DNA of 64,000 bases from assembly GCF_004022215.1 (NCBI RefSeq), contig NZ_SAUZ01000013.1, forward strand, positions 1 through 64,000, in the 5' to 3' direction. Positions 10,208 to 54,757 of the stretch are shown here, one piece after another. The notes below the pieces were generated by a model, which saw only the letters and a program-made list of their open reading frames with translations, did no database searches and was not told where the DNA came from. Each line of letters begins with the position of its first letter. Position 1 is the first letter of the stretch. Position numbers and translations under genes: made by a program. Origin of the DNA: Paenirhodobacter populi. GTDB taxonomy: Bacteria; Pseudomonadota; Alphaproteobacteria; Rhodobacterales; Rhodobacteraceae.

Positions 10208-10275
10208 GGGCCAGCCCCCTCCCGGCGCGGCCACGGGCCGCGCGTTCGCCGGGGATATTCATGGAAAAACGACGG
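10208..10275 (+). repeat. Dispersed 3' element, copy A
   Basis: Starts at the base after the stop codon of the SDR gene. In this reading direction it has a G/C hairpin (GGGGCCAGCCCC), a long central hairpin whose arms are GCGCGGCC and GGCCGCGC, then CCGGGGATATTCATGGAAAA and ACGACGG. The first and last blocks match the other four copies in the window; the central hairpin has different bases but is still fully paired. The convergent ferric-reductase-like gene ends at 10295. Confidence 0.75.
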
Positions 10276-10294
10276 CCTACAAGTGAGCGGGATG

Positions 10295-10886
10295 TCAGGA
10301 CCGGCGCAGCAGCCGCAGGCCCGAACTGGCGCCGACGGCAAGCGATGCGAGGATGACGAGACAGAGCAGCGCCTTGTTGTTCGGCTCGATCACGCCGAAG
10401 ATCAACCATGCGTGGATCACGGCGCACAGGGCGCTGGCGACGGCGAGGCCAAGATGCAGCGGCCGCCAGATGCGGGGCGGGATCTGGCGCCGCAACGTGG
10501 ACACGATGCCCGCCGCCAGCAGCCCGGCAAACCCCGCGACGCCCCATGCCGAAAACGTCGTCAGCGCCCGCAGCAGCAGGGCGTCGGTGATGTCCTCGGG
10601 GCTGTAGAGCCAGAGCCCGGCGACATGGGCGAGCGCCAGCGCAAGGATCGCCGCACCCAGCCAGCGGTGTCGCCGACGCCCGGCGCGGGTCGCCCACGCC
10701 GCTGACCGGTAAGGGCCGCACCGCCAGCAGCGCCAGCGCCGCCGTGCCCGTAAGCCCGCCGAAGATCCAGACCGCCTCGCGCCCGCGTTGCAGCGGCGAG
10801 GCCGCGGCCAGCCCGAAGGCCACGGCGGCCAGCACCAGCACGGGGATCACCATCCGTCGGGGCAGGCGGTCAGCTTTGTTGGGCAT
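10295..10886 (-). pseudogene. Ferric-reductase-like transmembrane protein, frameshifted
   Basis: From an ATG at 10886 the frame encodes two hydrophobic helices (VIPVLVLAAVAFGLAA and IFGGLTGTAALALLAVRPL), then degenerates into Arg/Pro-rich sequence. In the next frame the rest of the protein is clear: RRHRWLGAAILALALAHVAG, then FSAWGVAGFAGLLAAG, RPLHLGLAVASALCAVIHAW and LLCLVILASLAVGASSGLRL, ending at 10295. A one-base difference near 10695-10705 joins the halves into a membrane protein of about 197 residues. Conserved His in helices (LALAHV, RPLH, VIHAW) match the haem-binding pattern of the ferric-reductase-like domain (YedZ/FRE type). The start overlaps the end of the dioxygenase-like gene. 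The break is either a true mutation or a sequencing error. Confidence 0.7.
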
Positions 10887-11305
10887 TGCCGCCGGTCGTA
10901 GGCTGAAGCACGAAACCGACCGTCATCGCCTTGCGGTCCCCACGGCCCAGAACCGGCCGCAGGAACAGCCTTTCGTAGCCGGGATCGTCATAGGCGACAT
11001 GGATATGAAGCTGCCCGCCCATCGGACGGATTTCCGAGATCTGCATGACATAGCGCCCGTTCGCATCGGTCATGACCGAGCCGTGGTTCGACGGCTCCCG
11101 CTCGCCGCCGCGGCCGGTCGCGGACCAGACCTGCACCCGGATGCCGGGAATGGGCGCGCAGCTTCCGGCTTCGCGCTCCACGCCCGAGACCTGCCAGCCG
11201 GTGCCGAGGTTCTGCACCAGCGGCGCGCCGGGTTTCAGCCAGCGCCGGGAAGGATGTCATCTGCAAGAGGGACAAGGCCATCGCGGCGGCTGTGATCGGT
11301 CGCAT
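10870..11305 (-). pseudogene. Secreted intradiol-dioxygenase-like protein, frameshifted
   Basis: An ATG at 11305 gives a signal peptide (MRPITAAAMALSLLQMTSFP, ALA). The mature part lies in another frame: LKPGAPLVQNLGTGWQVSGV, then CAPIPGIRVQVW, SNHGSVMTDANGRYVMQ and GGQLHIHVAYDDPGYERLFL, ending at 10870. A one-base change near 11240 separates the two. The mature segment (about 115 residues) resembles small periplasmic proteins annotated as dioxygenase-like, a beta-sandwich related to intradiol dioxygenases, with HxH available for metal binding. It overlaps the downstream membrane gene, so the pair is likely one operon. Both members carry a single frameshift, which points to joint decay or to assembly errors in GC-rich sequence. 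An internal start at 11217 would give a protein without export signal. Confidence 0.65.
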
Positions 11306-11418
11306 CGCTTGTCTCCGGTATTGATGATCCCTGCGGGGGTGACCAACAGTCCCACCCCCGGGCGATCATCGCAACGCTCACGGCCGATCCGGCGCTAAAT
11401 CTTTCGTGAGGGCAGGGG

Positions 11419-11649
11419 TCAATACCGCCCGCCGCGGTCGAACCAGTGCTGGGGCGCATCCCACAGGCGGCGGGCGGCCTCGGCCTTGGCCTCGGACCAT
11501 TCGACGCCGATGTCGTCGAGCAGATGCGCATCAAGCTGCGCGAGGCTGAGCCGTTGCCGGCGCAGCGCCCTGAGCGCCACGATCCGGCGCAGGATCGAAA
11601 CCGGACGGCGGACCAGCCGGATACCGGAGAAAGCATATTCACGGATCAT
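11419..11649 (-). CDS. DUF1127 small protein
   Basis: A 76-residue basic protein starting at 11649 with AAGGAG seven bases upstream. Residues about 20-65 (RRIVALRALRRQRLSLAQLD, then AHLLDDIGVEWSEAKAEA) are the DUF1127/YjiS domain, whose LaqLDdhLLrDIGl core is conserved in alphaproteobacteria. Members are small, often stress- or phosphate-responsive, and some bind RNA. Which applies here is unknown. It is transcribed away from the LysR gene, so the two share a 126-bp promoter region and may be co-regulated. Confidence 0.88.
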   Translation of the reverse strand: MIREYAFSGIRLVRRPVSILRRIVALRALRRQRLSLAQLDAHLLDDIGVEWSEAKAEAARRLWDAPQHWFDRGGRY

Positions 11650-11775
11650 TTGTGGCTCCTTTCGTCACGTCATCCCGTGATATTACGGGGGTTGTTTCCA
11701 CGGATCCTGATATACCCTTGACGAACCCATTCTCATAACCAAAGATTGTGCGGGTCATAATCAAGGATCGTGATA

Positions 11776-12687
11776 ATGCCCCGCACACTCGACCTGACAG
11801 CCCTGCGCGCCGTCGTCACCGTCGCCGAAAGCGGCAGCGTGACCCGCGCCGCGCAGATCCTGAACCTGACGCAATCCGCCGTTTCGATGCAGATCCGGCG
11901 GCTGGAGGAATCGCTCGGCCAGCCGCTGTTCAACCGCGCGCAGCGGCGGATGGAGCTGAGCGTGCAGGGCGAGCGGATCGTGGATTACGGGCGCCGGATG
12001 CTGCGGCTGAACGACGAGGCGCTGTGTTCCATCGGCGCGGCGGAGGGGTTGCAGGACCTGCGCCTTGGCGTGCCGCATGACATCGTTTCGCCGCAGATCC
12101 CGGCGATCCTGCGGTTGATGACGCTGGGTTGGCCGCGTCTGCGGATCGTGCTGACGGTGGCGAACAGCGTGGCATTGCTCGAAGGGTTCGCGGACGGATC
12201 GCTCGACATGATCCTGACGACGGAACAGCGTCCCGGCCCGCAGGGGGTGGCGCTGGGCCTGCGCCGGCTGGTGTGGCTGGGCGCGCCGGGGACGGTGGTG
12301 CGGCCCGACAGGCCGCTGCGGATCGCGCTTGGCAAGACCTGCGCCTTTCGCGCCGTTGCCTTCGAGGCGCTGGAGGCCGCCGGGATCATCGCCGAAAACG
12401 CCCTTGACGGGGACAGCGACGCGGTGATCGACGCGACGGTGGCGGCGGGCATGGCGGTGACGACGCGGCTGGAAGGCACCGGCATCGCGGGGTGCGAGGA
12501 ACTCGGCCCCGCCTCGGGTCTGCCCGACCTCGGCCATTCGGTCATCTGCTTCTACGACCGCACCAGCATGACCGGCGAGGCGATCGAGGCGCTGCGCGCC
12601 GAAATCCGCCGCGCCTACGCCACGCCCGACCCGCAGCCGCGCCCCGAGGCGCCCGCCCGCCGGGTGCCCGCATATTCACCGGACTGA
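11776..12687 (+). CDS. LysR-family transcriptional regulator
   Basis: A 303-residue LysR-type regulator. I take the ATG at 11776 because AAGGA lies at 11764-11768. The N-terminal winged helix is textbook (LTALRAVVTVAESGSVTRAA, then LNLTQSAVSMQIRRLEESLG, QPLFNR). The substrate-binding domain follows from about residue 90. The gene lies 73 bp upstream of ugpB in the same direction and is divergent from the DUF1127 gene, so it may control either. A Pho box candidate in the gap before ugpB suggests that the transporter is also or instead under PhoB. The effector cannot be deduced. The C-terminal 25 residues are Pro/Arg-rich and probably disordered. Confidence 0.88.
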   Translation: MPRTLDLTALRAVVTVAESGSVTRAAQILNLTQSAVSMQIRRLEESLGQPLFNRAQRRMELSVQGERIVDYGRRMLRLNDEALCSIGAAEGLQDLRLGVPHDIVSPQIPAILRLMTLGWPRLRIVLTVANSVALLEGFADGSLDMILTTEQRPGPQGVALGLRRLVWLGAPGTVVRPDRPLRIALGKTCAFRAVAFEALEAAGIIAENALDGDSDAVIDATVAAGMAVTTRLEGTGIAGCEELGPASGLPDLGHSVICFYDRTSMTGEAIEALRAEIRRAYATPDPQPRPEAPARRVPAYSPD

Positions 12688-12694
12688 AACCCGT

Positions 12695-12712
12695 CCGCCA
12701 CAGGACTGTTAC
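12695..12712 (+). promoter_or_regulatory. Candidate Pho box upstream of ugpB
   Basis: CCGCCAC (12695-12701), AGGA, CTGTTAC (12706-12712) has the 11-bp period of a PhoB box (CTGTCAT half-sites). The second half-site is good and the first is weak. It lies 49 bp before the ugpB start. Ugp operons are PhoB-regulated in other bacteria, which supports the reading, but this copy is below the quality of the site at 17089. Confidence 0.4.
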
Positions 12713-12760
12713 ATTTTCCGCAGAGGTTCCGCGCAGCAAGTCAACCGACAGGAGCTTCTG

Positions 12761-14059
12761 ATGCGCAACATCCTTCTGGTCGCCGGGGCGCTGACGCTCG
12801 GCGGCACGGCGCTGAACGCGGCGCCGACCCAGATCACGTGGTGGCACGGCATGGGCGGCGCGAACGAACAGGTGATCAACCAGGTCGCGCAGAAATTCAA
12901 CGAATCGCAATCGGCCTGCGCGATCACGCCGGTGTCCAAGGGCACCTATGAAGAGGCGCTGGCCTCGGGCATCGCGGCCTTCCGCTCCAAGGAACAGCCC
13001 AATATCCTGCAGGTCTTCGATGCCGGCGCGGCGACGATCATCAACGCCAAAGGCGCGACCATCCCGGCCGAGGATATCCTGTCGCAGAACGGCCACAAGC
13101 TGGACCGCGACGCCTTCATCAACGGCGTGCGCTATTTCTACGCCGATGCCGACGGCAAGTTCATCGGCATGCCGTTCAATTCCTCGGCGCCGATCATGTA
13201 TGTCAACGAAGAGGCGATGCAGAAGGCCGGGGTCGAGCCGCCGAAGACCTGGCAGGATTTCGAGAAGATCGCCCCGAAGCTGAAGGAGGCGGGCTATATC
13301 GGCATGACCGCCTCGCAGCTGACCTGGATGTTCTTCGAGAACTTCTTCTCGCGCAACAACATCCAGATGGCGTCGAACAACAACGGCTACGACAGCTTTC
13401 AGGGCACGACGCTGAACGCGACGAATCCCGAGCTGGTCGCCTTCTTCCAGAAGCTCAAGGACTGGCACGACAAGGGGTATTTCGGCTATTACGGCGCCGG
13501 CTGGAACGACAACCAGAAGCCCTTCGAGGAAGGCAAGGTGGCGCTGTGGATCGGGTCCTCGGGCTCGTTCGGCGGGCTGTCGCAGACCGCGACGATGCCT
13601 TTCTCGGCCGATTTCCTGCCCTATGACGCGGATGCGAAGGACGGCAACAAGTCGAGCTTCATCGGCGGCGCCTCGCTCTTCGCCATGTCGGGGCATCCGG
13701 CCGAGCAGAACAAATGCACCGCCGATTTCTTCAACTTCCTGACCTCGACGGATATCCAGAAGTTCTACCACGAACAGACGGGCTATGTCGCCATCACCAC
13801 CGCCGCCTACGAGGCCGCCAAGGCCGATGGCTGGTATGAAAAGCATCCGCAGGCCGAAGTCGGCATCAAGCAGCTGATGCTGCCGCAGGGCGAATGGTCG
13901 AAGGGCTACCGGCTGGGCTTCTATCCGCAGATCCGGGTGGTCGAGGAACGCGAGTTCAACAAGATCTTCTCGGGCGAAACCACGGTCGAGGATGCCTTCA
14001 AGGCGATCGAGACCGAGGGCAACGACCTGCTGGCGCGGTTCGCCAAGACCTCCGGCTGA
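12761..14059 (+). CDS. ugpB: sn-Glycerol-3-phosphate ABC transporter, binding protein
   Basis: A 432-residue periplasmic solute-binding protein (MalE/UgpB class) with a signal peptide ending around GGTALNAAP. It would capture sn-glycerol-3-phosphate and glycerophosphodiesters for import as a phosphorus and carbon source. UgpB hallmarks are TQITWWHGMGGANEQVINQV at the mature N-terminus, the PFNSSAPIMYVNEEAMQKAG block, and GEWSKGYRLGFYPQIRVVEE near the end. The start at 12761 follows AGGAG. The genes ugpA, ugpE and ugpC follow in the same order as in other ugp operons, with short gaps, completing the importer. Confidence 0.93.
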   Translation: MRNILLVAGALTLGGTALNAAPTQITWWHGMGGANEQVINQVAQKFNESQSACAITPVSKGTYEEALASGIAAFRSKEQPNILQVFDAGAATIINAKGATIPAEDILSQNGHKLDRDAFINGVRYFYADADGKFIGMPFNSSAPIMYVNEEAMQKAGVEPPKTWQDFEKIAPKLKEAGYIGMTASQLTWMFFENFFSRNNIQMASNNNGYDSFQGTTLNATNPELVAFFQKLKDWHDKGYFGYYGAGWNDNQKPFEEGKVALWIGSSGSFGGLSQTATMPFSADFLPYDADAKDGNKSSFIGGASLFAMSGHPAEQNKCTADFFNFLTSTDIQKFYHEQTGYVAITTAAYEAAKADGWYEKHPQAEVGIKQLMLPQGEWSKGYRLGFYPQIRVVEEREFNKIFSGETTVEDAFKAIETEGNDLLARFAKTSG

Positions 14060-14128
14060 TCGCCGGTCCCATGCAAGCCGGGTCCGCGACGCGGGCCCGG
14101 CCTTCGCCATTCCGCGAGGCGCCCGCCC

Positions 14129-15094
14129 ATGTCCGTTCCCTCCACCTCCCTTCAGACTTCCCCGAGCGGCATCGCGCGCCTTCGCGCCCGGCTGGCCGCC
14201 CCGCCCGAGGCCGCGAAGCGCGTGCAGTTCCGCCGACCGCTGCTGCCCTGGCTGCTTCTGGCGCCGCAGCTTGCGGTGGTCGCGACCTTCTTCTACTGGC
14301 CCTCGGCGCAGGCCGTCATCTCGTCCTTCTACATCGAGGATCCGTTCGGCTTTGGCGCCACCTTCGTCGGGCTGGACAATTACGCCGATGCGGTGGGATC
14401 GTCCGAATATATCCGCATCGCCGGTTTCACGGTGATGTTCACCGTGATCGTGACGGTGCTGTCGCTGGCGATCGGCATGCTGCTGGCGGTCAAGGCGGAC
14501 AAGGTGATCCGCGGCAGGCCCGCCTATCGCACCGCGCTGATCGCCGTCTATGCGATCGCGCCGCCTGTCGCCGGGCTGATCGGGATGATGCTGTTCGACC
14601 AGCATATCGGCTCGATCGTGCGGTTCGCGGCGCTGTTCGGCTGGAACATGCAGGTCGGGCTGAGCTACTGGGACACGGCCTTCGCGATGATCGTCGTCGC
14701 GGTCTGGCTGCAGATCCCCTACAATTTCATCTTCGTGCTGTCGGGGTTGCAGGCGATCCCCTCGGCGGTGCGCGAGGCGGCGCTGATCGACTGCCGCAAC
14801 GGGCTGCGCCGGTTCCGCACGGTGATCCTGCCGCTGCTGGCGCCGACGGCCTTCTTCCTGATGATCATCAACATCACCTACGCGCTGTTCGACACCTTCG
14901 CGCTGATCGACGTGATGGTGAAGGACAAGCCCGCCAACAACCCGATCACGCTGGTCTACAAGGTCTATCTGGACGGGTTCCGCGGCAATGACATCGGCGG
15001 GTCCTCGGCGCAGTCGGTGATCCTGATGGCGGTGGTGCTGGTGCTGACGCTGTTCCAGTTCCGCTACATCGAGCGGCGCGTGCATTACGGATGA
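14129..15094 (+). CDS. ugpA: sn-Glycerol-3-phosphate ABC transporter permease UgpA
   Basis: A 321-residue inner-membrane permease with six predicted helices. The first is LLPWLLLAPQLAVVATFFYW near residue 40, preceded by a cytoplasmic basic N-terminus. The EAA loop (IPSAVREAALIDCRNGLRRF, about 210-230) contacts the ATPase UgpC. The sequence INITYALFDTFALIDVM is characteristic of UgpA/MalF-type permeases. It follows ugpB by 69 bp and precedes ugpE by 4 bp, consistent with one transcript. It forms the heterodimeric channel with UgpE. Confidence 0.92.
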   Translation: MSVPSTSLQTSPSGIARLRARLAAPPEAAKRVQFRRPLLPWLLLAPQLAVVATFFYWPSAQAVISSFYIEDPFGFGATFVGLDNYADAVGSSEYIRIAGFTVMFTVIVTVLSLAIGMLLAVKADKVIRGRPAYRTALIAVYAIAPPVAGLIGMMLFDQHIGSIVRFAALFGWNMQVGLSYWDTAFAMIVVAVWLQIPYNFIFVLSGLQAIPSAVREAALIDCRNGLRRFRTVILPLLAPTAFFLMIINITYALFDTFALIDVMVKDKPANNPITLVYKVYLDGFRGNDIGGSSAQSVILMAVVLVLTLFQFRYIERRVHYG

Positions 15095-15098
15095 TGCG

Positions 15099-15941: not shown

Positions 15942-15942
15942 C

Positions 15943-17031
<1,089 letters not shown>

Positions 17032-17088
17032 TCGACGGGGCCGGATCATGACATGCTGGTGGCGACTCCGTCGCTTTGACCCTTCCGA

Positions 17089-17106
17089 TTGTCATGAAGC
17101 TGTAAC
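17089..17106 (+). promoter_or_regulatory. Candidate Pho box upstream of second ABC importer
   Basis: TTGTCAT (17089-17095), GAAG, CTGTAAC (17100-17106) fits the PhoB consensus of two CTGTCAT-like half-sites 11 bp apart, differing at one position in each half. It lies 77 bp before the start of the binding-protein gene. It is the main evidence that the downstream importer and hydrolases serve phosphorus acquisition. Confidence 0.55.
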
Positions 17107-17183
17107 GGCGGCGGCGTAGGCAGCCCGCATGTCGGAGGCAGAGGCTTTCGCACGAAACACAGGATTCCCGAAAGGAGTGACCG

Positions 17184-20922: not shown

Positions 20923-21991
20923 TCCCGCGCGGTTCGAGATCCTTTCGGGTCTGGGCGCGAAGGGCCCGGCCTGCATCCGGCTGCGCACCGGGCGGCATGT
21001 CTGGTTGCTGGATGTCGGCTCGGGGCCGGAGGCCGACGCGCCCTTTCGCCCCGAATGGCTCGACGGTGCCGATGCGGTGTTCATCAGCCACGATCACGTC
21101 GATCATGTCGGCGGGGCCGTCCATGCGGTGCGCGCCGGTCTGCCGATCCGCTGCACGGCGCAGACGGCCCGGGCGCTGCCGCCCGGCGCGCGGGTGCAGG
21201 TTCTGCCCGAGCGGGGCGAGACGGTCATCGACGGCATCCGTCTTGTCACCGGGCGCGACGGCCATGCGCTTGGCGGGATCTGGATGTGGTTCGATCTGGG
21301 CGAGGGGCTGTTCTATTCAGGCGACTGGTCGGCGGAATCGCAGTGGTTCGCCTTCGACATGCCGCAGGTGACGGTGGGGACCGCGCTGATCGACTGTTCC
21401 TATCGCCGTGATGACGTTTCGCAGGACCGGCGGCGGGCGGAGCTGGATGCTACCTTGGATGCCCTCGGACCCGAAGTGCAGGTGCTGTTCCCCGTGCCGC
21501 CCTCGGGCCGGGCCGGGGAGCTGGCGCTGCATCTGTTGCCACGCGGCGGGGTCACGCTTGACGATACCTGCCGGGAGGCGGTGCGGGCGGCGCTCGCCTC
21601 GGACGGGGTGACGCCGCGGGCGCGTGATCTGCGGCCGTTGCTCGACCGGCCCTTCGATCCCGCGGCGCGCTATCTGATCTGCGATACGCCGGATGCCGAT
21701 GGCGGCATGGCCGCGCGGATGGTGCGGGACTGGCGGGGGCAGGGGCGGCTTGGCCGTGATGCGCGGGTGGTGTTCACCGGACACATGACCGCGCCCGCCC
21801 GGGCGATTGCCGCCGAGGGTGGGCTGTTCCGGCGCTGGAACGTGCATCCGCCGCTGCACGACCAGATCGCCATGGTGCGGCAGTTGCGGGCGCGCCGCTT
21901 TGCCCCGCTGTTCTGCGAGGATCCGGCGGATTACCTCTCCGAGCCGGGCTTCACTGCCGCACCGCTGCTGGACGGATGGGGGCTGTTGTGA
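20915..21991 (+). CDS. Metallo-beta-lactamase-fold hydrolase
   Basis: A 358-residue cytoplasmic MBL-fold enzyme. The ATG at 20915 overlaps the ATPase gene by 8 bp. The metal site is clear: H59-x-H61-x-D63-H64 (ISHDHVDHVGG), followed by GRDGHALGG and YSGDW. The second half contains VVFTGHMTAPARAIAAEG and NVHPPLHDQIAMVRQLRARR, reminiscent of the C-terminal motifs of nucleic-acid-processing MBL proteins. In this operon it sits between a Pho-box-controlled importer and a histidine phosphatase, so a phosphodiesterase acting on the imported compound is an attractive guess. I know of no characterised enzyme with this arrangement. Confidence 0.78.
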   Translation: MPDPARFEILSGLGAKGPACIRLRTGRHVWLLDVGSGPEADAPFRPEWLDGADAVFISHDHVDHVGGAVHAVRAGLPIRCTAQTARALPPGARVQVLPERGETVIDGIRLVTGRDGHALGGIWMWFDLGEGLFYSGDWSAESQWFAFDMPQVTVGTALIDCSYRRDDVSQDRRRAELDATLDALGPEVQVLFPVPPSGRAGELALHLLPRGGVTLDDTCREAVRAALASDGVTPRARDLRPLLDRPFDPAARYLICDTPDADGGMAARMVRDWRGQGRLGRDARVVFTGHMTAPARAIAAEGGLFRRWNVHPPLHDQIAMVRQLRARRFAPLFCEDPADYLSEPGFTAAPLLDGWGLL

Positions 21992-22557
21992 CTTTGCCCC
22001 GGCGTGCCTTCTGCCTGATCCGCCATGGCGAGACCGATGCCAACCGCGACGGCATCATCGCCGGCCGGACCGAGGCACGGCTGACCGCGCGCGGACGGGC
22101 GGCGGCGGCGGGGCTGGCGATCCTCGACTGGCCCGGCAGGATCGCGGTCTTTTCCAGCCCGCAGGAGCGTGCCCGCGAAACCGCCGCGCTGGCCTTTCCG
22201 GGGTTGCGGGTGACGGTGCTGGCCGGGCTGCGCGAACGCGACTGGGGCCGGTTCGAGGGCAGACCCCTTGCCGAACGCCCCGACCGCGAAGCCCCGGCCG
22301 AGGGTTGGGAGGACTGGTCCGCGATGGTCGACCGGGTGGAATGGGCGATCGCGCAGGCTGTTGCGCGCAGCGGCGCTGCGCTGCCCGTCATCGTCGCGCA
22401 TTCCGGCGTGATCCGCGCGGCCCGGGTGTTGACCGGGGGCGGGGCGGGCGGCCCTTCGGCGGAAAACGCCCTGCCGTTGTTGTTCGCGCCGGTGGGTGGG
22501 GGCTGGCGTGAAGGGCGGCTTTTCACCGACGGGCCGGCGCGCGGGCGGATGGGGTGA
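21988..22557 (+). CDS. Histidine phosphatase family protein
   Basis: A protein of about 189 residues of the phosphoglycerate-mutase-like histidine phosphatase superfamily. I take the GTG at 21988, which overlaps the preceding TGA; the ATG at 21976 is an alternative. The catalytic LIRHGETDANRDG lies at the N-terminus, RERDWGRFEGRP in the middle supplies Arg and Glu, and PVIVAHSGVIRA supplies the second active-site His. Members remove phosphate from sugars, nucleotides or other monoesters. As the last gene of the Pho-box operon, it could release phosphate from the product of the MBL enzyme. A copy of the dispersed element follows at once. Confidence 0.85.
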   Translation: MTLPRRAFCLIRHGETDANRDGIIAGRTEARLTARGRAAAAGLAILDWPGRIAVFSSPQERARETAALAFPGLRVTVLAGLRERDWGRFEGRPLAERPDREAPAEGWEDWSAMVDRVEWAIAQAVARSGAALPVIVAHSGVIRAARVLTGGGAGGPSAENALPLLFAPVGGGWREGRLFTDGPARGRMG

Positions 22558-22559
22558 AA

Positions 22560-22627
22560 GGGGGCGCCGCCCCCTCTTTGCGCTGACGCGCAAATTCACC
22601 CCCGGGATATTTAGGGAAAAACGACGG
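22560..22627 (+). repeat. Dispersed 3' element, copy B
   Basis: Begins 3 bp after the histidine phosphatase stop. Order in this direction: GGGGGCGCCGCCCCC hairpin, central hairpin with arms TTTGCGC and GCGCAAA, then CACCCCCGGGATATTTAGGG and AAAAACGACGG. The outer blocks match the other copies; the central arms are AT-richer but still perfectly paired. Confidence 0.78.
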
Positions 22628-27182: not shown

Positions 27183-27228
27183 GGTCTGGCGCGGCCGAAC
27201 CAACTGCCCCGGCCTTCCTCCCATCATC

Positions 27229-27282
27229 TTTCCAAAAATATCCCGGGGGTGAGCGCGGTACGCGCGAGGGGGCTGGCCCCCT
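27229..27282 (-). repeat. Dispersed 3' element, copy C
   Basis: On the minus strand this follows the rutD stop by 85 bp. It reads AGGGGGCCAGCCCCCT, a central hairpin with arms GCGCG and CGCGC, then CACCCCCGGGATATTTTTGG. Compared with copies D and E (arms GCCCG and CGGGC), both arms changed together so that pairing is kept. Confidence 0.78.
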
Positions 27283-27366: not shown

Positions 27367-28161
27367 TCAGACCGCCTCGACACTCCCGAGACCGTCGAAG
27401 AAATCGCCAATCACCCGGTTGAACCGGGCGGGACTGGTGACGTTGAGGGCATGGCCGCCCTCGGGTTCCAGCACCAGCCGGGCACCGGGGATGCCCTCGG
27501 CCAGCCGCACCGACCGCGACCACGGCACCAGCATGTCGTCGCGGCTGGCGACGATCAGCACCGGCGCCGCGACCTCGGCCAGCCTGTCGTCCACGTCGAA
27601 GGCGCGCAGCGCGGCGATGCGGCGGGTGATGTTCCCGGCACCCTGAAAATGCGCGATCCCATGCGCTTCCTCTTCCGCCAGCCGGGCGGCGTTCCGGGCC
27701 ATCCATTCGGCGGGATAGAGGAACAGCGGCTGCGCCTTGAGAAATGCCTCGACGCCGGTATCGCGCAACAACGCCAGCCGCACGTCGAAACACCGCCCGG
27801 AATGCGCGTCGGCGCGGCTCCATGCGTTGATCAGCACGAGGCTGGCGATCCGGTCGGGTTCGCGCAGCGCGAGGTCCAGCCCCATCAGCCCGCCAAGCGC
27901 ATGGCCGATGAAATGCGCGCGCGGGGTGCCCGAGGCCCGCATCACCTCGATCACATCGTCAGCCATGTCGGCGATGGTGGTGCCCTCGGGCACGGTGCCG
28001 CCGGTGCGGGCGCAGCCGCGATGGTCGTAGGTCACGACGCGGAACCGCGCCCGCAGCGCCTCGATCTGCGGCGCCCAATAGCCCGCCGAACCGCCAAGGC
28101 CCGAGGACAGCAGCACCGTTTCCGCCTCGGGCGACGGCCCGTCCAGAATGTCGAACTTCAT
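27367..28161 (-). CDS. rutD: RutD, aminoacrylate hydrolase-type alpha/beta hydrolase
   Basis: A 264-residue alpha/beta-hydrolase fold protein. In the Rut uracil pathway RutD speeds conversion of 3-aminoacrylate to malonic semialdehyde and ammonia. The start MKFDILDGPSPEAETVLLSS and GLGGSAGYWAPQIEAL match RutD, as do VVTYDHRGCARTGGTVPEG and FIGHALGGLMGLDLAL. The nucleophile elbow is GHALGG, with Ala at the usual Ser position, a known oddity of RutD proteins. It is the last gene of rutABCD, 4 bp after rutC. Confidence 0.92.
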   Translation of the reverse strand: MKFDILDGPSPEAETVLLSSGLGGSAGYWAPQIEALRARFRVVTYDHRGCARTGGTVPEGTTIADMADDVIEVMRASGTPRAHFIGHALGGLMGLDLALREPDRIASLVLINAWSRADAHSGRCFDVRLALLRDTGVEAFLKAQPLFLYPAEWMARNAARLAEEEAHGIAHFQGAGNITRRIAALRAFDVDDRLAEVAAPVLIVASRDDMLVPWSRSVRLAEGIPGARLVLEPEGGHALNVTSPARFNRVIGDFFDGLGSVEAV

Positions 28162-37956: not shown

Positions 37957-38019
37957 GCCGTCGTTTTTCCATAAATATCCCGGGGGTGAGCCCGGAACGG
38001 GCGAGGGGGCTGGCCCCCT
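37957..38019 (-). repeat. Dispersed 3' element, copy D
   Basis: On the minus strand it starts 18 bp after the stop of the CodA-like gene: AGGGGGCCAGCCCCCT, central hairpin with arms GCCCG and CGGGC, then CACCCCCGGGATATTTATGG and AAAAACGACGG. It is identical to copy E over 54 consecutive bases although the two lie 16.7 kb apart. Confidence 0.82.
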
Positions 38020-38037: not shown

Positions 38038-39327
38038 TCAGACGCCGGGCACGTAATCCCGGCCCGGATCCACCTCGGCCGGGCGGCCTTCCAGCGACAG
38101 CAAAGATACCCGCGGCAGGGTGCGGCTGATGACCTTGCCGGCCTTCAGCACATAAAGCCGCGCGGGTTTCAGCCGGATCGCCTCGACCACATCGGCTGCC
38201 TGCAACACCACCAGATCGGCGTTGCAGCCGACCTCGACCCCGTAGCCCGGCAATTCCATCGTGCGGGCGGAATTCACGGTGATCGCGTCGTAGATGCGCT
38301 TCTTGTCCTCGATCCCACCCATCTGGCCGACATGCACCGCCATATGCGCGACCTCGACCATGTCGGCCGAACCCATCGAATACCACGGGTCCATGCAGCA
38401 ATCCTGACCGAGCGAAACGTTCACCCCGGCCTCCATCAACTCGCGCACCCGGGTCAGGCCGCGCCGCTTGGGATAGGTATCGTGGCGACCCTGCAACATG
38501 ATGTTGATCAGCGGGTTGGGGGTGGCGTTGATCCGCGCCTCGGCCATCAGCGGGATAAGCTTCGACACATAGTAATTGTCCATCGAATGCATCGAGGTCA
38601 GGTGCGAGCCGTTCACCCGCCCCTGAAGCCCGTGGCGGATCGTCTCGGCGGTCAGCGTCTCGATATGGCGCGACATCGGATCGTCGGTCTCGTCGCAATG
38701 GATGTCGACGGGCAGGCCGCGTTCGGCCGCGATCCGGCAAAGGGCTTCGAGCGAACGCCGCCCGTCCTCCATCGTGCGCTCGAAATGCGGGATGCCGCCC
38801 ACGACGTCGATCCCCATGTCCAGCGCGCGTTCCAGCGACTTTGCCCCCTCGGGCGCGCGGTAATAGCCGTCCTGCGGAAAGGCGACGAGCTGCAGGGTGA
38901 TGTAGTCCTTCACCCGGTCGCGGACCTCCAGCATCGCCTCGGCCGTCACCAGCCGGGGGTCCGAGGTGTCGACATGGCTGCGGATGAACAACAGCCCCTG
39001 CGACACGGCCAGATCGCAATAGCGCAGCGCGCGTTCGACCAGCGCCTCGCGGGTCAGCGTCGGGCGCAGCTCGCCCCACAGCGCGATCCCCTCCAGCAGC
39101 GTTCCCGACACGTTCATCCGCGGCAGGCCGAGCGAGAGGGTCGCATCCAGATGGAAATGCGGGTCGCAGAAGGCCGGGCTGATCAGGCGGCCCGTCACGT
39201 CGATTTCCTCGCGCGCGGTGGCCTCGATACGCTTTTCGATCGCGGCGATTTTGCCGCCCGTCACGCCAAGGTCTACGCCCGCGCGCCCGTCGGGCAGGTT
39301 GCCGTTGCGCAGGATGATGTCGAACAT
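38038..39327 (-). CDS. Cytosine-deaminase-like amidohydrolase (CodA family)
   Basis: A 429-residue cytosolic metal-dependent deaminase. The metal ligands of E. coli CodA are all present with a constant offset of four: H57, H59 (DPHFHLDAT), H210, H242 and D309, plus the proton-shuttling E213 (HCDETDD). The ring-binding Gln is kept in VAFPQDG. The specificity loop differs: CodA has GHDD, here GQDC, so the residue matching CodA D314 is Cys310 and the one matching H312 is Gln308. The enzyme therefore likely deaminates a related ring compound rather than, or as well as, cytosine. It starts a block with the BMP-type importer and amidase; the permease gene ends 15 bp upstream, so it is probably the last gene of that operon. 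Confidence 0.85.
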   Translation of the reverse strand: MFDIILRNGNLPDGRAGVDLGVTGGKIAAIEKRIEATAREEIDVTGRLISPAFCDPHFHLDATLSLGLPRMNVSGTLLEGIALWGELRPTLTREALVERALRYCDLAVSQGLLFIRSHVDTSDPRLVTAEAMLEVRDRVKDYITLQLVAFPQDGYYRAPEGAKSLERALDMGIDVVGGIPHFERTMEDGRRSLEALCRIAAERGLPVDIHCDETDDPMSRHIETLTAETIRHGLQGRVNGSHLTSMHSMDNYYVSKLIPLMAEARINATPNPLINIMLQGRHDTYPKRRGLTRVRELMEAGVNVSLGQDCCMDPWYSMGSADMVEVAHMAVHVGQMGGIEDKKRIYDAITVNSARTMELPGYGVEVGCNADLVVLQAADVVEAIRLKPARLYVLKAGKVISRTLPRVSLLSLEGRPAEVDPGRDYVPGV

Positions 39328-48819: not shown

Positions 48820-48894
48820 ATTCCAAAAGAATACGCTTAACCGCCCATTAACCCCTTTTGCCGATGATTGCCGCATCGCGAGCGGGAGTTTTCG

Positions 48895-50466: not shown

Positions 50467-50484
50467 CGGGCGCCGCCCGCAATG

Positions 50485-50513
50485 AAAAGCCCGCCCGCAC
50501 GGGGCGGACGGGC
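50485..50513 (-). terminator. Intrinsic terminator of the DUF481 gene
   Basis: On the minus strand GCCCGTCCG (50513-50505) pairs with CGGGCGGGC (50497-50489), one G-U pair, and is followed by TTTT. It lies 23 bp after the DUF481 stop and is a normal Rho-independent terminator. The convergent PAS gene ends at 50466. Confidence 0.82.
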
Positions 50514-50535
50514 AAGGTTTGCGCGGATCGCTCGA

Positions 50536-51366
50536 TCAGAAGCCGAAGACCAGCGACACACCAAAGGTGTTGTCGGTTTTCTTGCGGCCCTCGACCGGGG
50601 CGCTGTTGAAGTCGGTCTTGTAGCTGATGCGCGTGGTCATGACGTCGGTCATCTTCACGTTCAGCGCAAGATCGTTGGTGTTCAGCGTGCCCGCATCCGA
50701 CTTCAGGATGTCGGTGTCGTTGGTCAGGAAGACGTTCTCGTTGAACTGGTAGTAGAAGCGCGAGGAGACGATCCCCGCGAATTCGGTGTCGTCGTCACGC
50801 AGCGAGTCGTTGACCTGATAGTAGCGCGCACCGATACCGGCCTGCACACGCCAGGTCATGTTCTGCTCGTTCAGCACCCGGTAACCCGGGCCGACGCCGA
50901 CGAAGCTGTCCTTGCGGTAGGAGGCGAAGTCGTCCTGCTCATACCGGGCAAGGCCGAAGGCGTAGAGACGATCGTCGAAGTAGTAGTTGCCTTCGTAGAA
51001 GCCGAACACATCCTGCTTCGACCGTTTGTCGTCGTCCTTGCCGTATTCGATGCCGACGCCGAAGGTGTGCTGCCAGGGGCCCGCACCATAGGTGAGCTTA
51101 CCGGCCAGCGCGAGATCGTCGGTGTCGGTATTGCCCGAGGTCCCGGCATAGGTCAGCGCCATCGCCCCGCTCCAGCCCGGCCGGAACGCGTTCGGCCCGA
51201 AACGCTGGCTGTCGTTCATGTCGGACAGATTCTTGTTCGCCTCGTTGCGGACGTCGGTGATGCGGTCATCAAGGCTGTCGATGCCGGTCACGGCGCTTTG
51301 GGCGAAGGCCTGCGTTCCCGCGAGCGCGGTTGCGGCCAGCAGGGCAGAGGTGGTGACAAGTTTCAT
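50536..51366 (-). CDS. DUF481-family outer-membrane beta-barrel protein
   Basis: A 276-residue protein with signal peptide MKLVTTSALLAATALAGTQA (cleavage after FAQ). After a short coiled stretch (SLDDRITDVRNEANKNLSDM) the remainder alternates polar and aromatic residues in antiparallel strands. GWSGAMALTYAGTSGNTDTD is the DUF481 opening, and the last strand ends NTFGVSLVFGF with a terminal Phe, the usual outer-membrane assembly signal. Such proteins are salt-induced barrels of unknown function (YdiY in E. coli). It has its own promoter and a clear terminator, so it is monocistronic. Confidence 0.9.
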   Translation of the reverse strand: MKLVTTSALLAATALAGTQAFAQSAVTGIDSLDDRITDVRNEANKNLSDMNDSQRFGPNAFRPGWSGAMALTYAGTSGNTDTDDLALAGKLTYGAGPWQHTFGVGIEYGKDDDKRSKQDVFGFYEGNYYFDDRLYAFGLARYEQDDFASYRKDSFVGVGPGYRVLNEQNMTWRVQAGIGARYYQVNDSLRDDDTEFAGIVSSRFYYQFNENVFLTNDTDILKSDAGTLNTNDLALNVKMTDVMTTRISYKTDFNSAPVEGRKKTDNTFGVSLVFGF

Positions 51367-51889
51367 CGTGATACTCCGTAGACTGGTCCCGACGGGAAAT
51401 TCCCCGTGGGCTGCGCCTTACATCGTGCGAACGGGGGGGAATAACAGGCGGGTCCGCTGCGCGCCGCAAGTGGTGTTACGCAATTGCCACATGCCTTCTT
51501 GTTGAATTTGCAGAATTTTGCCGTCCGTGATCGGCATCCGGCCAGTTCTTGCCGCTTTCGCCTGTCACGAAAAAGTCAGCGCCGGAAATTGGGAACCAAG
51601 CCCGATCTGCGGCGTTTCACGAACACATCGTTTTCCAAAAACCGGCCTCGCGGAGAAATTCGCGGGGCCTATCTTTTTCGGCCCGGCACGGACCGAAACG
51701 CCCGCCCCGCGAAGGGAGCCCGGCGCATTCGGTGACATCGCAACGCGCGCCGATCCTTCCGCGCGGCCGAATGGTGCATACCGTTCAAGATGGATTATCC
51801 CGCCGCGGAACGCGGATATACTGCGGGGGCATCCGCGCCCCCGCCCATCCCGGCGGAGCCGAAAGAAAAACTTGCAGGAGGAATACCCC
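51367..51889. other. Intergenic region, promoters only
   Basis: 523 bases between two divergent genes. No convincing coding sequence is present; open frames to the right in + lie upstream of the thioredoxin-fold gene and lack a domain. It should carry promoters for both genes. A small inverted repeat CCGCG-GAA-CGCGG lies at 51803-51815, 75 bp upstream of the next start, and could be an operator. Confidence 0.5.
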
Positions 51890-52447
51890 ATGACCCGCCC
51901 CGCCCCCCATGCCGATCCGCTGTTCTGGGGCCACGGCCCGCGCATCTTCGAGATGTTCCTTGAGCCGACCTGCCCGTTTTCCGTCCGCGCCTTCGGCAAG
52001 ATGGATGCGCTGCTGGATCAGGCCGGGCCTGACCGGATCACCGTCCGGCTGCGGATGCAGTCGCAGCCCTGGCACATGTTCTCGCCCGTCGTGGTGCGCT
52101 GCGTGCTGGCAGCCTCGATGCTGGACGGCGGGCGGGAAAACGCCAAGGCCGTGCTGGCCGCCGTCGCCGCGCATCGCGAGGAATTCGAGTTCGAGAAGCA
52201 CTGCAAAGGGCCGAACATGGACGCCACGCCGAACCAGATCATCGCCCGGATCGAGGACTATGCCGGCCTGAAACTGGCCGAGGCCTTCGAATTTCCCGAG
52301 CTGGAGGCCGCGATCAAATGGCACGCGAAATACGCTCGGCAGAACGGCATCCACGTATCGCCGACATTCATGATCGACGGGCTCGTGCAGCCGGATATCG
52401 GCAGCGGCGATCCGGTCGAAAGCTGGGTCGAAAAGCTGCTCGGCTGA
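51890..52447 (+). CDS. DsbA-like thioredoxin-fold protein with single active Cys
   Basis: A 185-residue cytoplasmic protein from the ATG at 51890, preceded by CAGGAGG. The fold is thioredoxin-like with a helical insert. The active motif is C28-P-F-S (FLEPTCPFSVRAFGKMDALL), so one of the two Cys of CxxC is replaced by Ser, as in some DsbA-like isomerases and glutathione-dependent enzymes. The cis-Pro loop is HVSPTFMIDG. It converges with a CPYC-type DsbA gene 4 bp away, so a redox or peroxide-linked role is likely but unproven. Confidence 0.82.
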   Translation: MTRPAPHADPLFWGHGPRIFEMFLEPTCPFSVRAFGKMDALLDQAGPDRITVRLRMQSQPWHMFSPVVVRCVLAASMLDGGRENAKAVLAAVAAHREEFEFEKHCKGPNMDATPNQIIARIEDYAGLKLAEAFEFPELEAAIKWHAKYARQNGIHVSPTFMIDGLVQPDIGSGDPVESWVEKLLG

Positions 52448-52451
52448 ACGG

Positions 52452-52967
52452 TCAGCCCGCCGCCGCCAGCGCATCGGCGATCGACTGCGCGTCCTGCGCG
52501 CCGTCGTAGCGCGTTCCGTTGATGAACAGCGACGGCGTGCCGTTCACGCCGCTGCGCACGCCGCCGGTGAAATCGTGGCGGACATGCTGTTCCCGGCTGC
52601 CGTCGAAGGCGCTGCGGATCGCCGCCTGCGACAGGCCGAGCTGTTCGCCGTAAGCCACCAGACTTTCGTCATCCAGCGCGTCCTGATTCTGAAACAGCAC
52701 CTCGTGCATCTGCCAGAACTTGCCCTCGCTCGCCGCGGCCTCGGCCATTTCGGCGGCGCGTTCGGCATGGGGATGGGCCTCGGACAGCGGAAAATGCCGG
52801 AATACGAAACACAGGTTGTCGCCGAAGGCCTGACGGATCGCGGCGATTTCCGGGAAAAGCGCGCCGCAATAGGGGCATTCGTAATCGCCGTATTCCACCA
52901 GTTGCAGCGGTGCGTCGAGCGGGCCGAGGTGATGGTCGCTGGCCGAGACGGGCGGGCGCAGGCTCAT
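52452..52967 (-). CDS. DsbA-family disulfide oxidoreductase (CPYC)
   Basis: A 171-residue thioredoxin-fold protein. It lacks a signal peptide, so it is probably cytoplasmic. The active site is C31-P-Y-C34 in LQLVEYGDYECPYCGALFPE, and the cis-Pro loop is SGVNGTPSLFINGTRYDG. FRHFPLSEAHPHAERAAEMA is the common insert motif of this DsbA/NhaA-thioredoxin group. It overlaps the upstream peroxiredoxin gene (ATGA), which suggests that it recycles or cooperates with that enzyme. Confidence 0.88.
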   Translation of the reverse strand: MSLRPPVSASDHHLGPLDAPLQLVEYGDYECPYCGALFPEIAAIRQAFGDNLCFVFRHFPLSEAHPHAERAAEMAEAAASEGKFWQMHEVLFQNQDALDDESLVAYGEQLGLSQAAIRSAFDGSREQHVRHDFTGGVRSGVNGTPSLFINGTRYDGAQDAQSIADALAAAG

Positions 52968-53461
52968 GCGGCACCGCCCTTCACCCCGAGCGCGTCCAGC
53001 GCGTCGAGGATCCCGTCCGCCCCCGGATTGATGCCGACGGGGGAAAGGTAGCTCCAGCGGATCACGCCCTCGCCGTCGATGACATACAGGGACCGCTCGG
53101 CCACACCTTCGGTGGCGCGATAGCTGTGATAGGTGCGGGCGACGGCGCCCTTCGGCTCGAAATCCGACAGCAGCGGGAAATGGATCTTGTTCGCCTTGGC
53201 GAAGGCCTCATGGCACCAGACGCCGTCGACGGAAATCCCCATCAGCTCGGCGCCATAGGCGGAAAATTCGGACAGCATTTCATTATACAGCACCATCTGG
53301 TCGCTGCAGACGGGGCTCCAGTCCGCGGGATAGAAGGCCAGAATGACCGGCCTGCCGCGCAGGTCGGACAGCTTGACCAACTGGTCGGGCGTCGAGTGGA
53401 GGGAAAAGTCCGGCGCCTTCGTGCCGGGTTGAAGCAGGACGTTCGCTGCCGTGTCGGCCAT
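52964..53461 (-). CDS. Peroxiredoxin (AhpC/TSA family)
   Basis: A 165-residue peroxiredoxin from the ATG at 53461, preceded by GAGGTG. The peroxidatic Cys is C52 in FYPADWSPVCSDQM, matching the PxxxTxxC environment with Ser in place of Thr. FPLLSDFEPKGAVARTY and RSLYVIDGEGVIRWSYLSP are family blocks. Cys83 (GVWCHEAF) could act as an additional thiol. It reduces peroxides with thiol donors, and the overlapping CPYC protein is a candidate donor. A further in-frame start at 53515 would add residues with no counterpart. Confidence 0.92.
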   Translation of the reverse strand: MADTAANVLLQPGTKAPDFSLHSTPDQLVKLSDLRGRPVILAFYPADWSPVCSDQMVLYNEMLSEFSAYGAELMGISVDGVWCHEAFAKANKIHFPLLSDFEPKGAVARTYHSYRATEGVAERSLYVIDGEGVIRWSYLSPVGINPGADGILDALDALGVKGGAA

Positions 53462-53654
53462 GATATGCACCTCGCTGCGATCACGGATGGCGCCGGTCCG
53501 ATGAGGGCCGGACATGGCGTCAGTGTCCTCCCCCCGTGACGGAAATACAAGCAGGCGCGCGCTCTCACGATGAGGTGAGCCGTCGTGATCGCCGGTTTTC
53601 CCGGTCCGGGCCTATATCCAAAGGAACGGTCTTACGACATGGGAAACGGAACGG

Positions 53655-54638
53655 ATGGTCTCACGGCGGATCTTCTCGCTGGGTCTGGGCGCGGCGCTGG
53701 CCGCACCGGCCCTTGGGCGCGCGCAGGGCGCGGCATTGGCCGAACTGCGCCAGTCCGCCGGTGCGCTGCGGCAGTTGCATGCGATCACGGTGCAGCGCGG
53801 CGATGATGTGATCCTGGCCGAGGCCCCGCGCGGTCCCGGCCTGTCGCGGTCCGCGAACATCAAATCCTGCTCGAAAAGCGTGCTCGCCCTGTTGGTCGGT
53901 TCGGCGATCGCGGGCGGGCAGCTCCGCCTGTCCGACCGGCTTGGTGACATCGCCCCGCGCCTCGTCCCCGCTGACGCGACCGAAGGCGCGGCGGGGCTGA
54001 CGATCGAGGATCTGGTGACGCTGCGGGCCGGGCTCGCCAGCACGTCGGGGGCGAATTACGGCGCTTGGGTCGCCTCGCCGAACTGGGTGGCCTATGCGCT
54101 GCGCCAGCCCCGGATCGCGCCGGCGGGCGGGCGGATGATCTATTCCACCGGATCGACGCATGTGCTTGGCGCGGCGCTGGCGACGGTCACGGGCGACAGC
54201 CTGCTGACCCTGTCGCGCCGCTCGCTGGGCGCCGGTCTGGGGATCGAGATTCCCTCGTGGACGCGCGATCCGCAGGGCTTCTACTTCGGCGGCAACGAAA
54301 TGGCCCTGACGCCCGAGGCCATGCTGCGCATCGCCGTGATGATGCGCGACGGCGGGCGCTATCGGGACCGGCAGGTCATCGACCGCGACTGGATCGAGGC
54401 CTCGCGCCAGCCCCGCACCCGCTCACCCTATTCGGGCCTGTCCTATGGCTACGGCTGGTTTCTCAGCCCCAGCGGCTGGACGCTGGCGCGCGGCTATGGC
54501 GGGCAGCTCATCGCCGCGCATCCGGCGCGCGGGCTGGCGGTGGCGATCACCTCGGACCCTCAGCAACCGGCCAGATCCGAAGGCTATTTCGGCGATCTGA
54601 TGCGGCTGCTCGACGGCCCGGTGCGCGCCCTGGGCTAG
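53655..54638 (+). CDS. Exported serine hydrolase, beta-lactamase/esterase class C fold
   Basis: A 327-residue protein starting with a Tat-like signal (MVSRRIFSLGLGAALAAPAL). The SxxK nucleophile is S71-C-S-K74 (NIKSCSKSVLALL), the second motif is YSTG (MIYSTGSTHVLGAAL, Ser-Thr in place of the usual YxN), and the third is GYGGQLIAA in place of HxG/KTG. This fold covers esterases, D-aminopeptidases and class C beta-lactamases. Resistance should not be assumed. A copy of the dispersed element and a convergent alcohol dehydrogenase follow. Confidence 0.86.
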   Translation: MVSRRIFSLGLGAALAAPALGRAQGAALAELRQSAGALRQLHAITVQRGDDVILAEAPRGPGLSRSANIKSCSKSVLALLVGSAIAGGQLRLSDRLGDIAPRLVPADATEGAAGLTIEDLVTLRAGLASTSGANYGAWVASPNWVAYALRQPRIAPAGGRMIYSTGSTHVLGAALATVTGDSLLTLSRRSLGAGLGIEIPSWTRDPQGFYFGGNEMALTPEAMLRIAVMMRDGGRYRDRQVIDRDWIEASRQPRTRSPYSGLSYGYGWFLSPSGWTLARGYGGQLIAAHPARGLAVAITSDPQQPARSEGYFGDLMRLLDGPVRALG

Positions 54639-54698
54639 GCTTGGGGGGAAGGGCGCCTCCCCGCCGACACAAAGCTGCCCGAAACAGCCCTGAGCCTT

Positions 54699-54757
54699 TC
54701 GTGTTTCCATAAATATCCCGGGGGTGAGCCCGGAACGGGCGAGGGGGCTGGCCCCCT
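54699..54757 (-). repeat. Dispersed 3' element, copy E
   Basis: Lies 147 bp after the adhP stop on the minus strand. It reads AGGGGGCCAGCCCCCT, central hairpin GCCCG/CGGGC, then CACCCCCGGGATATTTATGG, and is identical to copy D over 54 bases. The final block is ACACGA rather than ACGACGG, so divergence begins at that side. Confidence 0.82.

What the first reader, a model, noticed from the sequence alone, without database searches (positions are those of the whole stretch)
10208..54757. Five-copy intergenic element with covarying central hairpin, always 3' of a gene in the same direction
Copies A (10208-10275 +), B (22560-22627 +), C (27229-27282 -), D (37957-38019 -) and E (54699-54757 -) share GGGGGCCAGCCCCC-like and CACCCCCGGGATATTTATGG blocks, usually ending AAAAACGACGG. 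Between them is a hairpin whose arms differ but always pair: GCCCG/CGGGC (D, E), GCGCG/CGCGC (C), GCGCGGCC/GGCCGCGC (A), TTTGCGC/GCGCAAA (B). In all five, reading the blocks in this order puts the element downstream of a stop codon (0-147 bp) of a gene on that strand. Compensatory change shows selection on structure. The lack of a T-run after the hairpins argues against an ordinary terminator. It could be a 3'-end mRNA element, a termination/processing signal or a REP-like mobile palindrome.
Basis: seen in the sequence. Interest (0 to 1): 0.75.

Follow-up and report, generated by a model that had tools for sequence, protein, structure and literature searches.

The report
Widespread hairpin repeat at gene ends
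A short DNA repeat with one or two perfect hairpins and a fixed 13-letter core sits just past the ends of many genes in one large bacterial family; its form and place suggest an end-of-gene signal, but I found no earlier description and its job still has to be proved in the laboratory.

Summary
The five copies are real and belong to a very large family. The core CCCCGGGATATTT occurs 341 times in the window's genome; the reversed control occurs 0 times. The family is widespread in Rhodobacteraceae and nearly absent from other families sampled. A unit is hairpin 1 (GGGGG..CCCCC), usually a freely varying hairpin 2, the core and a purine-rich tail. In the own-genome sample 149 of 149 copies lie outside called genes, concentrated between convergent genes.

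Pairing is strongly supported: 33 hairpin-2 arm pairs among 134 copies, 1 non-Watson-Crick pair in 722, against 79 in 833 for terminator-like hairpins.

"Always in the same direction" fails genome-wide. Four of the five copies lie between convergent genes, where either orientation qualifies; in tandem gaps 33 are sense and 23 antisense.

Between two close species 8 of 11 sites are shared, with losses and changed hairpins. No RAYT transposase domain or target duplication was found.

Best reading: a gene-end transcript signal, moderate confidence. Main rival: a REP-like repeat.

The parts
10206..10275 (+). Copy A: degenerate unit; hairpin 1 overlaps the TAG stop of the gene 9473-10207; nested GCGCGGCC/GGCCGCGC hairpin; variant core CGGGGATATTC (10250-10260); tail ATGGAAAAACGACGG
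22560..22627 (+). Copy B: hairpin 1 GGGGGCGCCGCCCCC (22560-22574), hairpin 2 TTTGCGC/GCGCAAA (22577-22594), core CCCCGGGATATTT (22600-22612), tail to 22627
27225..27282 (-). Copy C: hairpin 1 (27268-27281), hairpin 2 GCGCG/CGCGC, core (27236-27248), tail TTGGAAAGATG; the only one of the five in a tandem gap
37957..38019 (-). Copy D: hairpin 1 (38005-38018), hairpin 2 GCCCG/CGGGC, core (37973-37985), tail ATGGAAAAACGACGG; convergent gap
54699..54757 (-). Copy E: hairpin 1 (54743-54756), hairpin 2 GCCCG/CGGGC, core (54711-54723), tail ATGGAAACACGAA; convergent gap
9473..10207 (+). Gene upstream of A: short-chain dehydrogenase (PF13561)
21988..22557 (+). Gene upstream of B: histidine phosphatase superfamily (PF00300)
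27367..28161 (-). Gene upstream of C: alpha/beta hydrolase (PF00561)
38038..39327 (-). Gene upstream of D: amidohydrolase (PF07969)
54904..55905 (-). Gene upstream of E: zinc-type alcohol dehydrogenase (PF00107, PF08240)

Best explanation
It is a Rhodobacteraceae gene-end repeat that most likely punctuates transcripts. Read in the sense direction, a transcript passes one or two short, perfectly paired GC hairpins, then the fixed core C4-5-G-purine3-TATTT and a purine-rich tail. I infer that the hairpins protect the new 3' end or halt polymerase, and that the AU-rich core just downstream is where transcription stops or where an endonuclease such as RNase E cuts. A tail-to-tail pair would give each of two converging genes its own copy. 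Shown: anatomy, pairing, placement outside called genes and near gene 3' ends, preference for convergent gaps, spread through the family, conservation of the core, loss and change of copies over time. Inferred: that it acts on RNA, that it ends or processes transcripts, and the role of the core.
For: 0 of 149 sampled own copies inside called genes; convergent 81, tandem 56, divergent 9 (edge 3), against 19.7, 89.9 and 36.5 expected from available intergenic length. With a broader definition, 74 of 109 convergent gaps of 90 nt or more carry a copy, against 52 of 345 tandem and 9 of 185 divergent. In tandem gaps 45 of 56 are nearer to the upstream stop than to the next start. In 400 kb of G487, 3 of 3 pairs lie in convergent gaps and 3 of 3 tandem singles are sense. 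The core is kept while hairpins vary: among own intergenic copies found by the tail alone, 139 of 156 with 0-3 changes have the exact core and none has 4-5 changes. Own gene ends with a copy have an ordinary terminator in 2 of 15 cases, against 19 of 42 element-free orthologous ends (p = 0.033).
Against: Orientation is not fixed: 23 antisense against 33 sense in tandem gaps. Ordinary terminators are no commoner at ends facing an antisense copy (3 of 67) than at ends with a sense copy (7 of 76, p = 0.34). With length-matched convergent gaps the shortage of ordinary terminators at element ends is not significant, so replacement is not shown. Hairpins have almost no G-U pairs (1 in 722; 0 in 683 elsewhere), unlike terminator-like hairpins of the same genome, which is odd for a purely RNA-level constraint. 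There is no T-run, and no expression data were available. Of 49 orthologous gene ends in four relatives, 42 lack the core within 260 nt. Two of 17 core matches in G487 and 4 of 94 in other loci fell inside called genes.
Confidence: 0.45

Rival explanations
1. A REP-like extragenic palindromic repeat: a dispersed, largely neutral or selfish repeat that accumulates at gene 3' ends because insertions elsewhere are harmful, copied or homogenised by an unidentified route; any effect on transcripts is secondary.
For: High copy number, placement between convergent and tandem genes with few in divergent gaps, near-random orientation in tandem gaps, pairs in opposite orientation, copy number from 19 to 341 in 18 genomes of one genus, presence or absence at orthologous ends. 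CGTC-tagged REPs of Alphaproteobacteria also lack a dedicated transposase (passages of PMC3733652).
Against: No Y1 domain (PF01797) in 18 of 18 genus genomes while the control search rang in 5 of 14 known genomes; other transposases were not sought. No target duplication above shuffled flanks; no decayed series of cores; 8 of 11 compared sites shared, at least in one half, between G486 and G487; hairpin 2 sequence is free, not conserved; no match in the phage collection with a 63-base query.
Confidence: 0.35
2. A DNA-level structure or protein site, for example a cruciform-forming or single-strand hairpin site, or a gyrase or nucleoid-protein site, placed where converging transcription builds up positive supercoils.
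For: Arms change together and almost only as Watson-Crick pairs, so the palindrome is perfect on both strands; little orientation preference; concentration in convergent gaps; in relatives the two halves of a pair match each other better than non-partners (0.91 against 0.74, 0 of 2000 permutations).
Against: In the window's own genome the tails of 11 pairs match partners no better than non-partners (0.773 against 0.762; 810 of 2000 permutations as high). A separate strict, non-palindromic core and tail need their own reason. No protein was identified.
Confidence: 0.14
3. A DNA uptake or recombination signal that has been co-opted into gene ends, as uptake signals are in Neisseria and Pasteurellaceae.
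For: A fixed family-wide word in many copies, inverted pairs at gene ends; analogy with PMC1852404 (passages).
Against: 19 to 341 copies here rather than the 1,000 or more usual for uptake signals (passage); 0 of 149 in called genes; long structured unit rather than a word of about 9-11 nt; no uptake data.
Confidence: 0.04

Closest known systems
CGTC-tagged REPs of Alphaproteobacteria (PMC3733652, passages read)
   Same: Dispersed palindromes, mostly between convergent or unidirectional genes, often as inverted dimers, no dedicated transposase
   Different: Those are short stems with an unpaired CGTC at one end and a CCA-like tail; here there are one or two hairpins, the second with free sequence, then a fixed C5-G-purine3-TATTT core and a purine-rich tail, about 60-85 nt; CGTC is not a regular foot
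GTAG REPs / BIMEs with RAYT transposases (PMC2817692, passages read)
   Same: Copy number, 3'-intergenic placement, opposite-orientation pairs
   Different: GTAG is not a regular foot, no Y1_Tnp in 18 genus genomes, hairpin 2 sequence not conserved
Intrinsic (Rho-independent) terminators
   Same: GC hairpin just past a stop codon, compensatory change
   Different: No T-run, a conserved core shortly past the hairpin, nearly no G-U pairs or mismatches
Terminators built from paired DNA uptake signals in Neisseria and Pasteurellaceae (PMC1852404, passages read)
   Same: Inverted pairs of a genus- or family-wide word at gene ends
   Different: Here the word is longer, absent from called genes in the own sample, and carried behind separate hairpins
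HRC-8-4 motif of Rhodobacterales (PMC8632094, section 22 read)
   Same: Rhodobacterales-only structured intergenic element
   Different: That one is a terminator-like stem found mainly between the cco operons; this one is dispersed at many gene ends

Membership tests
Intrinsic terminator | Stable GC hairpin downstream of a stop codon | tested here: met
   133 of the 134 own copies with a readable hairpin 1 and an inner part of 10-34 nt have a hairpin-2 stem of 4 or more Watson-Crick pairs; 15 of the 149 sampled copies were outside this set. Median 44 nt from stop to element edge in tandem gaps
Intrinsic terminator | Run of T directly after the hairpin | tested here: not met
   In the profile of 146 own copies the hairpin is followed by about TCAC and then the core CCCCGGGATATTT by which they were found
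Intrinsic terminator | Transcripts end there | not testable with these tools
RAYT-associated REP | Y1 (TnpA-REP) transposase in the genome | tested here: not met
   PF01797 at E 0.001 or better: 0 of 18 genus genomes; control genomes 5 of 14
RAYT-associated REP | GTAG tag at the hairpin foot | tested here: not met
   GTAG within 8 nt of the hairpin-1 foot in 3 of 134 own copies, 0 of 134 at the hairpin-2 feet
CGTC REP | Unpaired CGTC at one foot of the stem | tested here: not met
   CGTC at the hairpin-1 foot in 5 of 134, at the hairpin 1-2 junction in 9 of 134; in the complement of the tail in 27 of 134: not a regular feature
CGTC REP | Placement between convergent or unidirectional genes, opposite-orientation pairs | tested here: met
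MITE / DNA transposon derivative | Target-site duplication | tested here: not met
   No excess of flanking repeats of 5-7 nt over shuffled flanks; the element's boundaries are only approximate, so a weak signal could be missed
Any Rfam family | Score above the curated threshold | tested here: not met
   Window: 0 matches at gathering score. Seven loci with copies, E up to 1: only sub-threshold matches at the copies, mostly microRNA models that fit any long hairpin; a true RNase P RNA lies near one copy in L188
DNA uptake signal | Preferential uptake of DNA that carries it | not testable with these tools
   Needs a transformation assay

The most novel reading that the evidence does not exclude
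A family-wide gene-end signal of a new type, usable from both sides: the sequence of its second hairpin is free but both arms must stay exactly complementary, and specificity comes from a strict core (C5-G-purine3-TATTT) shortly past the hairpin. In much of Rhodobacteraceae it would stand in for ordinary terminators at converging genes, and its hairpins are swapped between copies and renewed so that both arms change together.
Probability: 0.3. Interest if true: 0.75.

Novelty: new variant of a known kind. Interest (0 to 1): 0.55.

Why it matters
If it ends or trims transcripts, it is a major gene-end signal in a large, ecologically important bacterial family that tools looking for a hairpin plus T-run would miss; it would change operon and sRNA annotation there. 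If it acts on DNA, it is a natural test case for structure-specific sites at converging genes. In either case the near absence of G-U pairs in arms that otherwise vary freely is a specific, testable oddity.

Tried and rejected
Rejected: chance; coding signal (0 of 149 in called genes); tRNA genes as hidden partners of the copies without a same-strand upstream gene (22 cases of the first, 855-kb sample); poor gene calls as the cause of antisense copies, because flanking genes mostly score high; RAYT-driven REP; target duplication; a phage-borne element (no phage match; 7 stretches in the viral collection); decayed relics.

Inconclusive: the terminator-replacement test. Own ends 2 of 15 against element-free orthologous ends 19 of 42; whole convergent gaps with 40-80 unmasked nt, 3 of 46 ends with a copy against 9 of 28 without, but no such difference in longer bins; length-matched ends, no significant difference under three settings. 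Fold energies of the five copies say nothing. A first gene caller put genes on wrong strands and was replaced. The first count of non-Watson-Crick pairs used a penalty that hid mismatches and was replaced. The control takes the first T-run within about 110 nt of every gene end, so some of its 88 hairpins may be no terminators and its mismatch rate may be too high; one search gives 66 of 957 under another rule. Contexts in other genera (94 matches: 19 convergent, 12 tandem sense, 5 tandem antisense, 3 divergent, 4 in genes, 51 at edges) are weak, because loci of 8 kb or less trained the gene caller on themselves. The pattern CCCCGGRRTATTT misses the GAGG and GAGA variants seen later, so copy numbers in relatives are lower bounds. 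My note says 18 gene ends; the right number is 15. The TniA/TniB island at 1-7500 was only named.

Papers: searches listed no description of this element. They cover only the held open-access library, and most lists were cut (for example 20 of 180 papers, 15 of 82, 10 of 170, 10 of 102). Passages were read of PMC7866481, PMC8632094 (its section 22), PMC1852404, PMC5107571, PMC3733652 and PMC2817692; all other papers were seen in search listings only.
Full report
OBSERVATION. The five copies are present as described. The core CCCCGGGATATTT, taken from four of them, occurs 341 times in the window's 4.78-Mb genome (176 forward, 165 reverse) and the same word read backwards occurs 0 times. Copy A is a degenerate member (core CGGGGATATTC). 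By my gene calls four of the five copies lie between converging genes and one (C) between tandem genes.

ANATOMY. Thirty own-genome loci, a profile of 146 copies (hairpin 1 recognised in 137) and 134 copies with a readable hairpin 1 and an inner part of 10-34 nt give the plan: hairpin 1 (GGGGG-CCAG-CCCCC or the CGCTG/CGCCG loop forms); hairpin 2, very variable, framed TC..TCAC or GTC..GACTC; core CCCC(C)GGGATATTT; two free bases; tail GGAA[AG]NA[CT]GA (99% at GGAA and GA); purine-rich to about +34; little conserved beyond. Other builds exist: a single hairpin followed by CACCCCCGAGGATATTT, and one large hairpin with CCTTCCACTGGAAGG. In other genomes hairpin 2 is often missing: 73 of 192 distinct copies with hairpin 1 have fewer than 12 nt between hairpin 1 and core.

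THE CORE IS KEPT, NOT MERELY RECENT. When own-genome copies are found by the tail alone, the preceding 13 bases match the core exactly in 139 intergenic cases and with 1, 2 or 3 changes in 9, 6 and 2; none has 4 or 5, and the rest are unrelated at 6 or more. Hairpin 2 has 61 distinct inner sequences and 33 distinct arm pairs among 134 copies.

PAIRING. Hairpin-2 stems of four or more Watson-Crick pairs: 133 of 134, against 12.5% after shuffling; with halves swapped between copies of equal length the rate falls from 98% to 35%. On 11 equal-length copies, one per distinct inner sequence and including window copy C, 4 of 5 hairpin-2 pairs have changes on both sides in 12 cells, none changes on one side only, 1 of 110 cells is unpaired, and 0 of 500 shuffles reach the covariation score. 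In 59 short-form copies from other genomes the two pairs below the G-run are Watson-Crick in 59 and 57, against shuffled means of 31.3 and 21.9. The strictness is unusual: non-Watson-Crick pairs are 1 of 722 in own copies and 7 of 683 elsewhere, none of the 7 a G-U. In terminator-like hairpins of the same genome they are 79 of 833 with 21 G-U (which may include hairpins that are no terminators), or 66 of 957 with 44 G-U under a rule that tolerates G-U. I have no firm explanation. Short stems that tolerate no weak pair, template-switch correction of imperfect palindromes (recalled, not tested), or a DNA-level constraint are all possible.

PLACEMENT. I called genes in 1,641,405 bases of the genome with a codon model trained on third-position GC. 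Of 149 exact cores, 0 lie in called genes; contexts are convergent 81, tandem sense 33, tandem antisense 23, divergent 9, contig edge 3. From available intergenic length one expects about 20 convergent, 90 tandem and 37 divergent. With a broader definition (166 copies), gaps of at least 90 nt carry an element in 74 of 109 convergent, 52 of 345 tandem and 9 of 185 divergent cases. In tandem gaps 45 of 56 copies are closer to the upstream stop than to the next start. Orientation is not decisive: 33 against 23 (p = 0.23; 37 against 28 with the broader set, p = 0.32); counting gaps, 24 have only sense, 14 only antisense and 9 both (my tally of the list).

PAIRS. In the own-genome sample neighbouring copies within 300 nt are 13 tail-to-tail and 7 head-to-head. 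In relatives G486 and G487 the listed positions show many tail-to-tail pairs with core spacing near 57 or 47-50; 20 such places were fetched and all are pairs. In 32 distinct pairs from relatives the two tails match better than non-partner tails (0.91 against 0.74; 0 of 2000 permutations), partly because genomes differ. In 11 own pairs they do not (0.773 against 0.762; 810 of 2000 permutations as high). In 400 kb of G487, 15 intergenic copies form 3 pairs, all convergent, and 9 singles (6 convergent, 3 tandem sense); 2 further matches fell inside called genes.

SPREAD. In 289 genomes across the class 30 have a match to CCCCGGRRTATTT; outside the own family the counts are 0-2 with one outlier of 6, and the three other members of the own family in that draw have 0, 1 and 2. 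The spread within the family rests: 152 of 198 family genomes have at least one match, up to 341, and 46 have none. In the genus 18 of 18 have it, 19 to 341 copies. Contig lengths suggest that G489 is Paenirhodobacter enshiensis DW2-9, so the window belongs to that genus as GTDB draws it; that the family is Rhodobacteraceae is inferred in the same way. Phages: no match with a 63-base query. Viral collection: 7 stretches. Plasmids: two Tritonibacter replicons at 83% identity; blastn with so short a query is insensitive.

EVOLUTION. For 15 gene ends that carry a copy in the own genome, 49 orthologous ends in four relatives were read; 7 have a core within 260 nt and 42 do not. Between G486 and G487, about 92% identical in one 4-kb locus, 11 sites of one syntenic region were compared: 8 share at least one half and 3 are absent or reduced in G487. 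At one site G487 and G499 keep exactly one hairpin 1, GGGGGGCGCTGCCCCCC, where G486 and G488 have the full pair, the left core altered in G488. This fits a collapse between the repeated GCCCCCC ends, or the reverse gain. At a shared site hairpin 2 reads GTCCGCAAGCGGAC in G486 and GTCCCTGCGGGAC in G487; at another, hairpin 2 of the right half is replaced as a whole; the core differs between GAGGTATTT and GGGATATTT, in both halves of a pair in one case. So copies descend vertically between close species, get lost, and appear to exchange parts.

FUNCTION. The unit sits where transcripts end and its hairpins are kept, so a transcript-end signal is the most economical reading. The test I hoped would decide it did not: ordinary hairpin-plus-T terminators are rarer at element ends than at element-free orthologous ends (2 of 15 against 19 of 42, p = 0.033), but in length-matched convergent gaps the difference is not significant, and ends facing an antisense copy do not keep more of them (3 of 67 against 7 of 76). 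AUAUU inside the core fits a published RNase E preference that I recall and did not check. Frequent antisense copies, strict Watson-Crick pairing and REP-like placement keep the DNA-level and REP-like readings open.

KNOWN OR NEW. No Rfam family matched above threshold. Ten literature searches listed no description; the library holds open-access papers only and most lists were cut. The nearest known kind is the REP class, above all the CGTC REPs of Alphaproteobacteria, from which it differs in plan. I class it as a new variant of a known kind.

Noticed in passing
window 1-7500: Low-GC stretch (47-61% per kb against 66% for the window) with a Mu-transposase C-terminal match just under Pfam's cut-off (4052-6223) and a TniB ATPase (6111-7232): probably a Tn7/Tn5053-like transposon or genomic island; my codon model called no genes before 8118.
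   Followed up: partly
L332 / L325 (G486, G487): A related build with core CCCCCAGCGTATTT followed by GCACCAAGAAAAAG sits close to an ordinary copy; its genome-wide abundance was not counted.
   Followed up: no
own-genome copies: Four main tail types (GGAAGAATGAA, GGAAAGATGAA, GGAAACACGAA, GGAAAAACGAC) occur with several of the common hairpin-2 types, as if modules were reshuffled between copies.
   Followed up: partly
L349 (G496), L366 (G334): In some relatives the tail has a different sequence (CACTGTTGAG, CAATTGGAAG), mirrored in both halves of the pair.
   Followed up: partly
G013: One genome of another family has 6 core matches; contamination or transfer was not checked.
   Followed up: no
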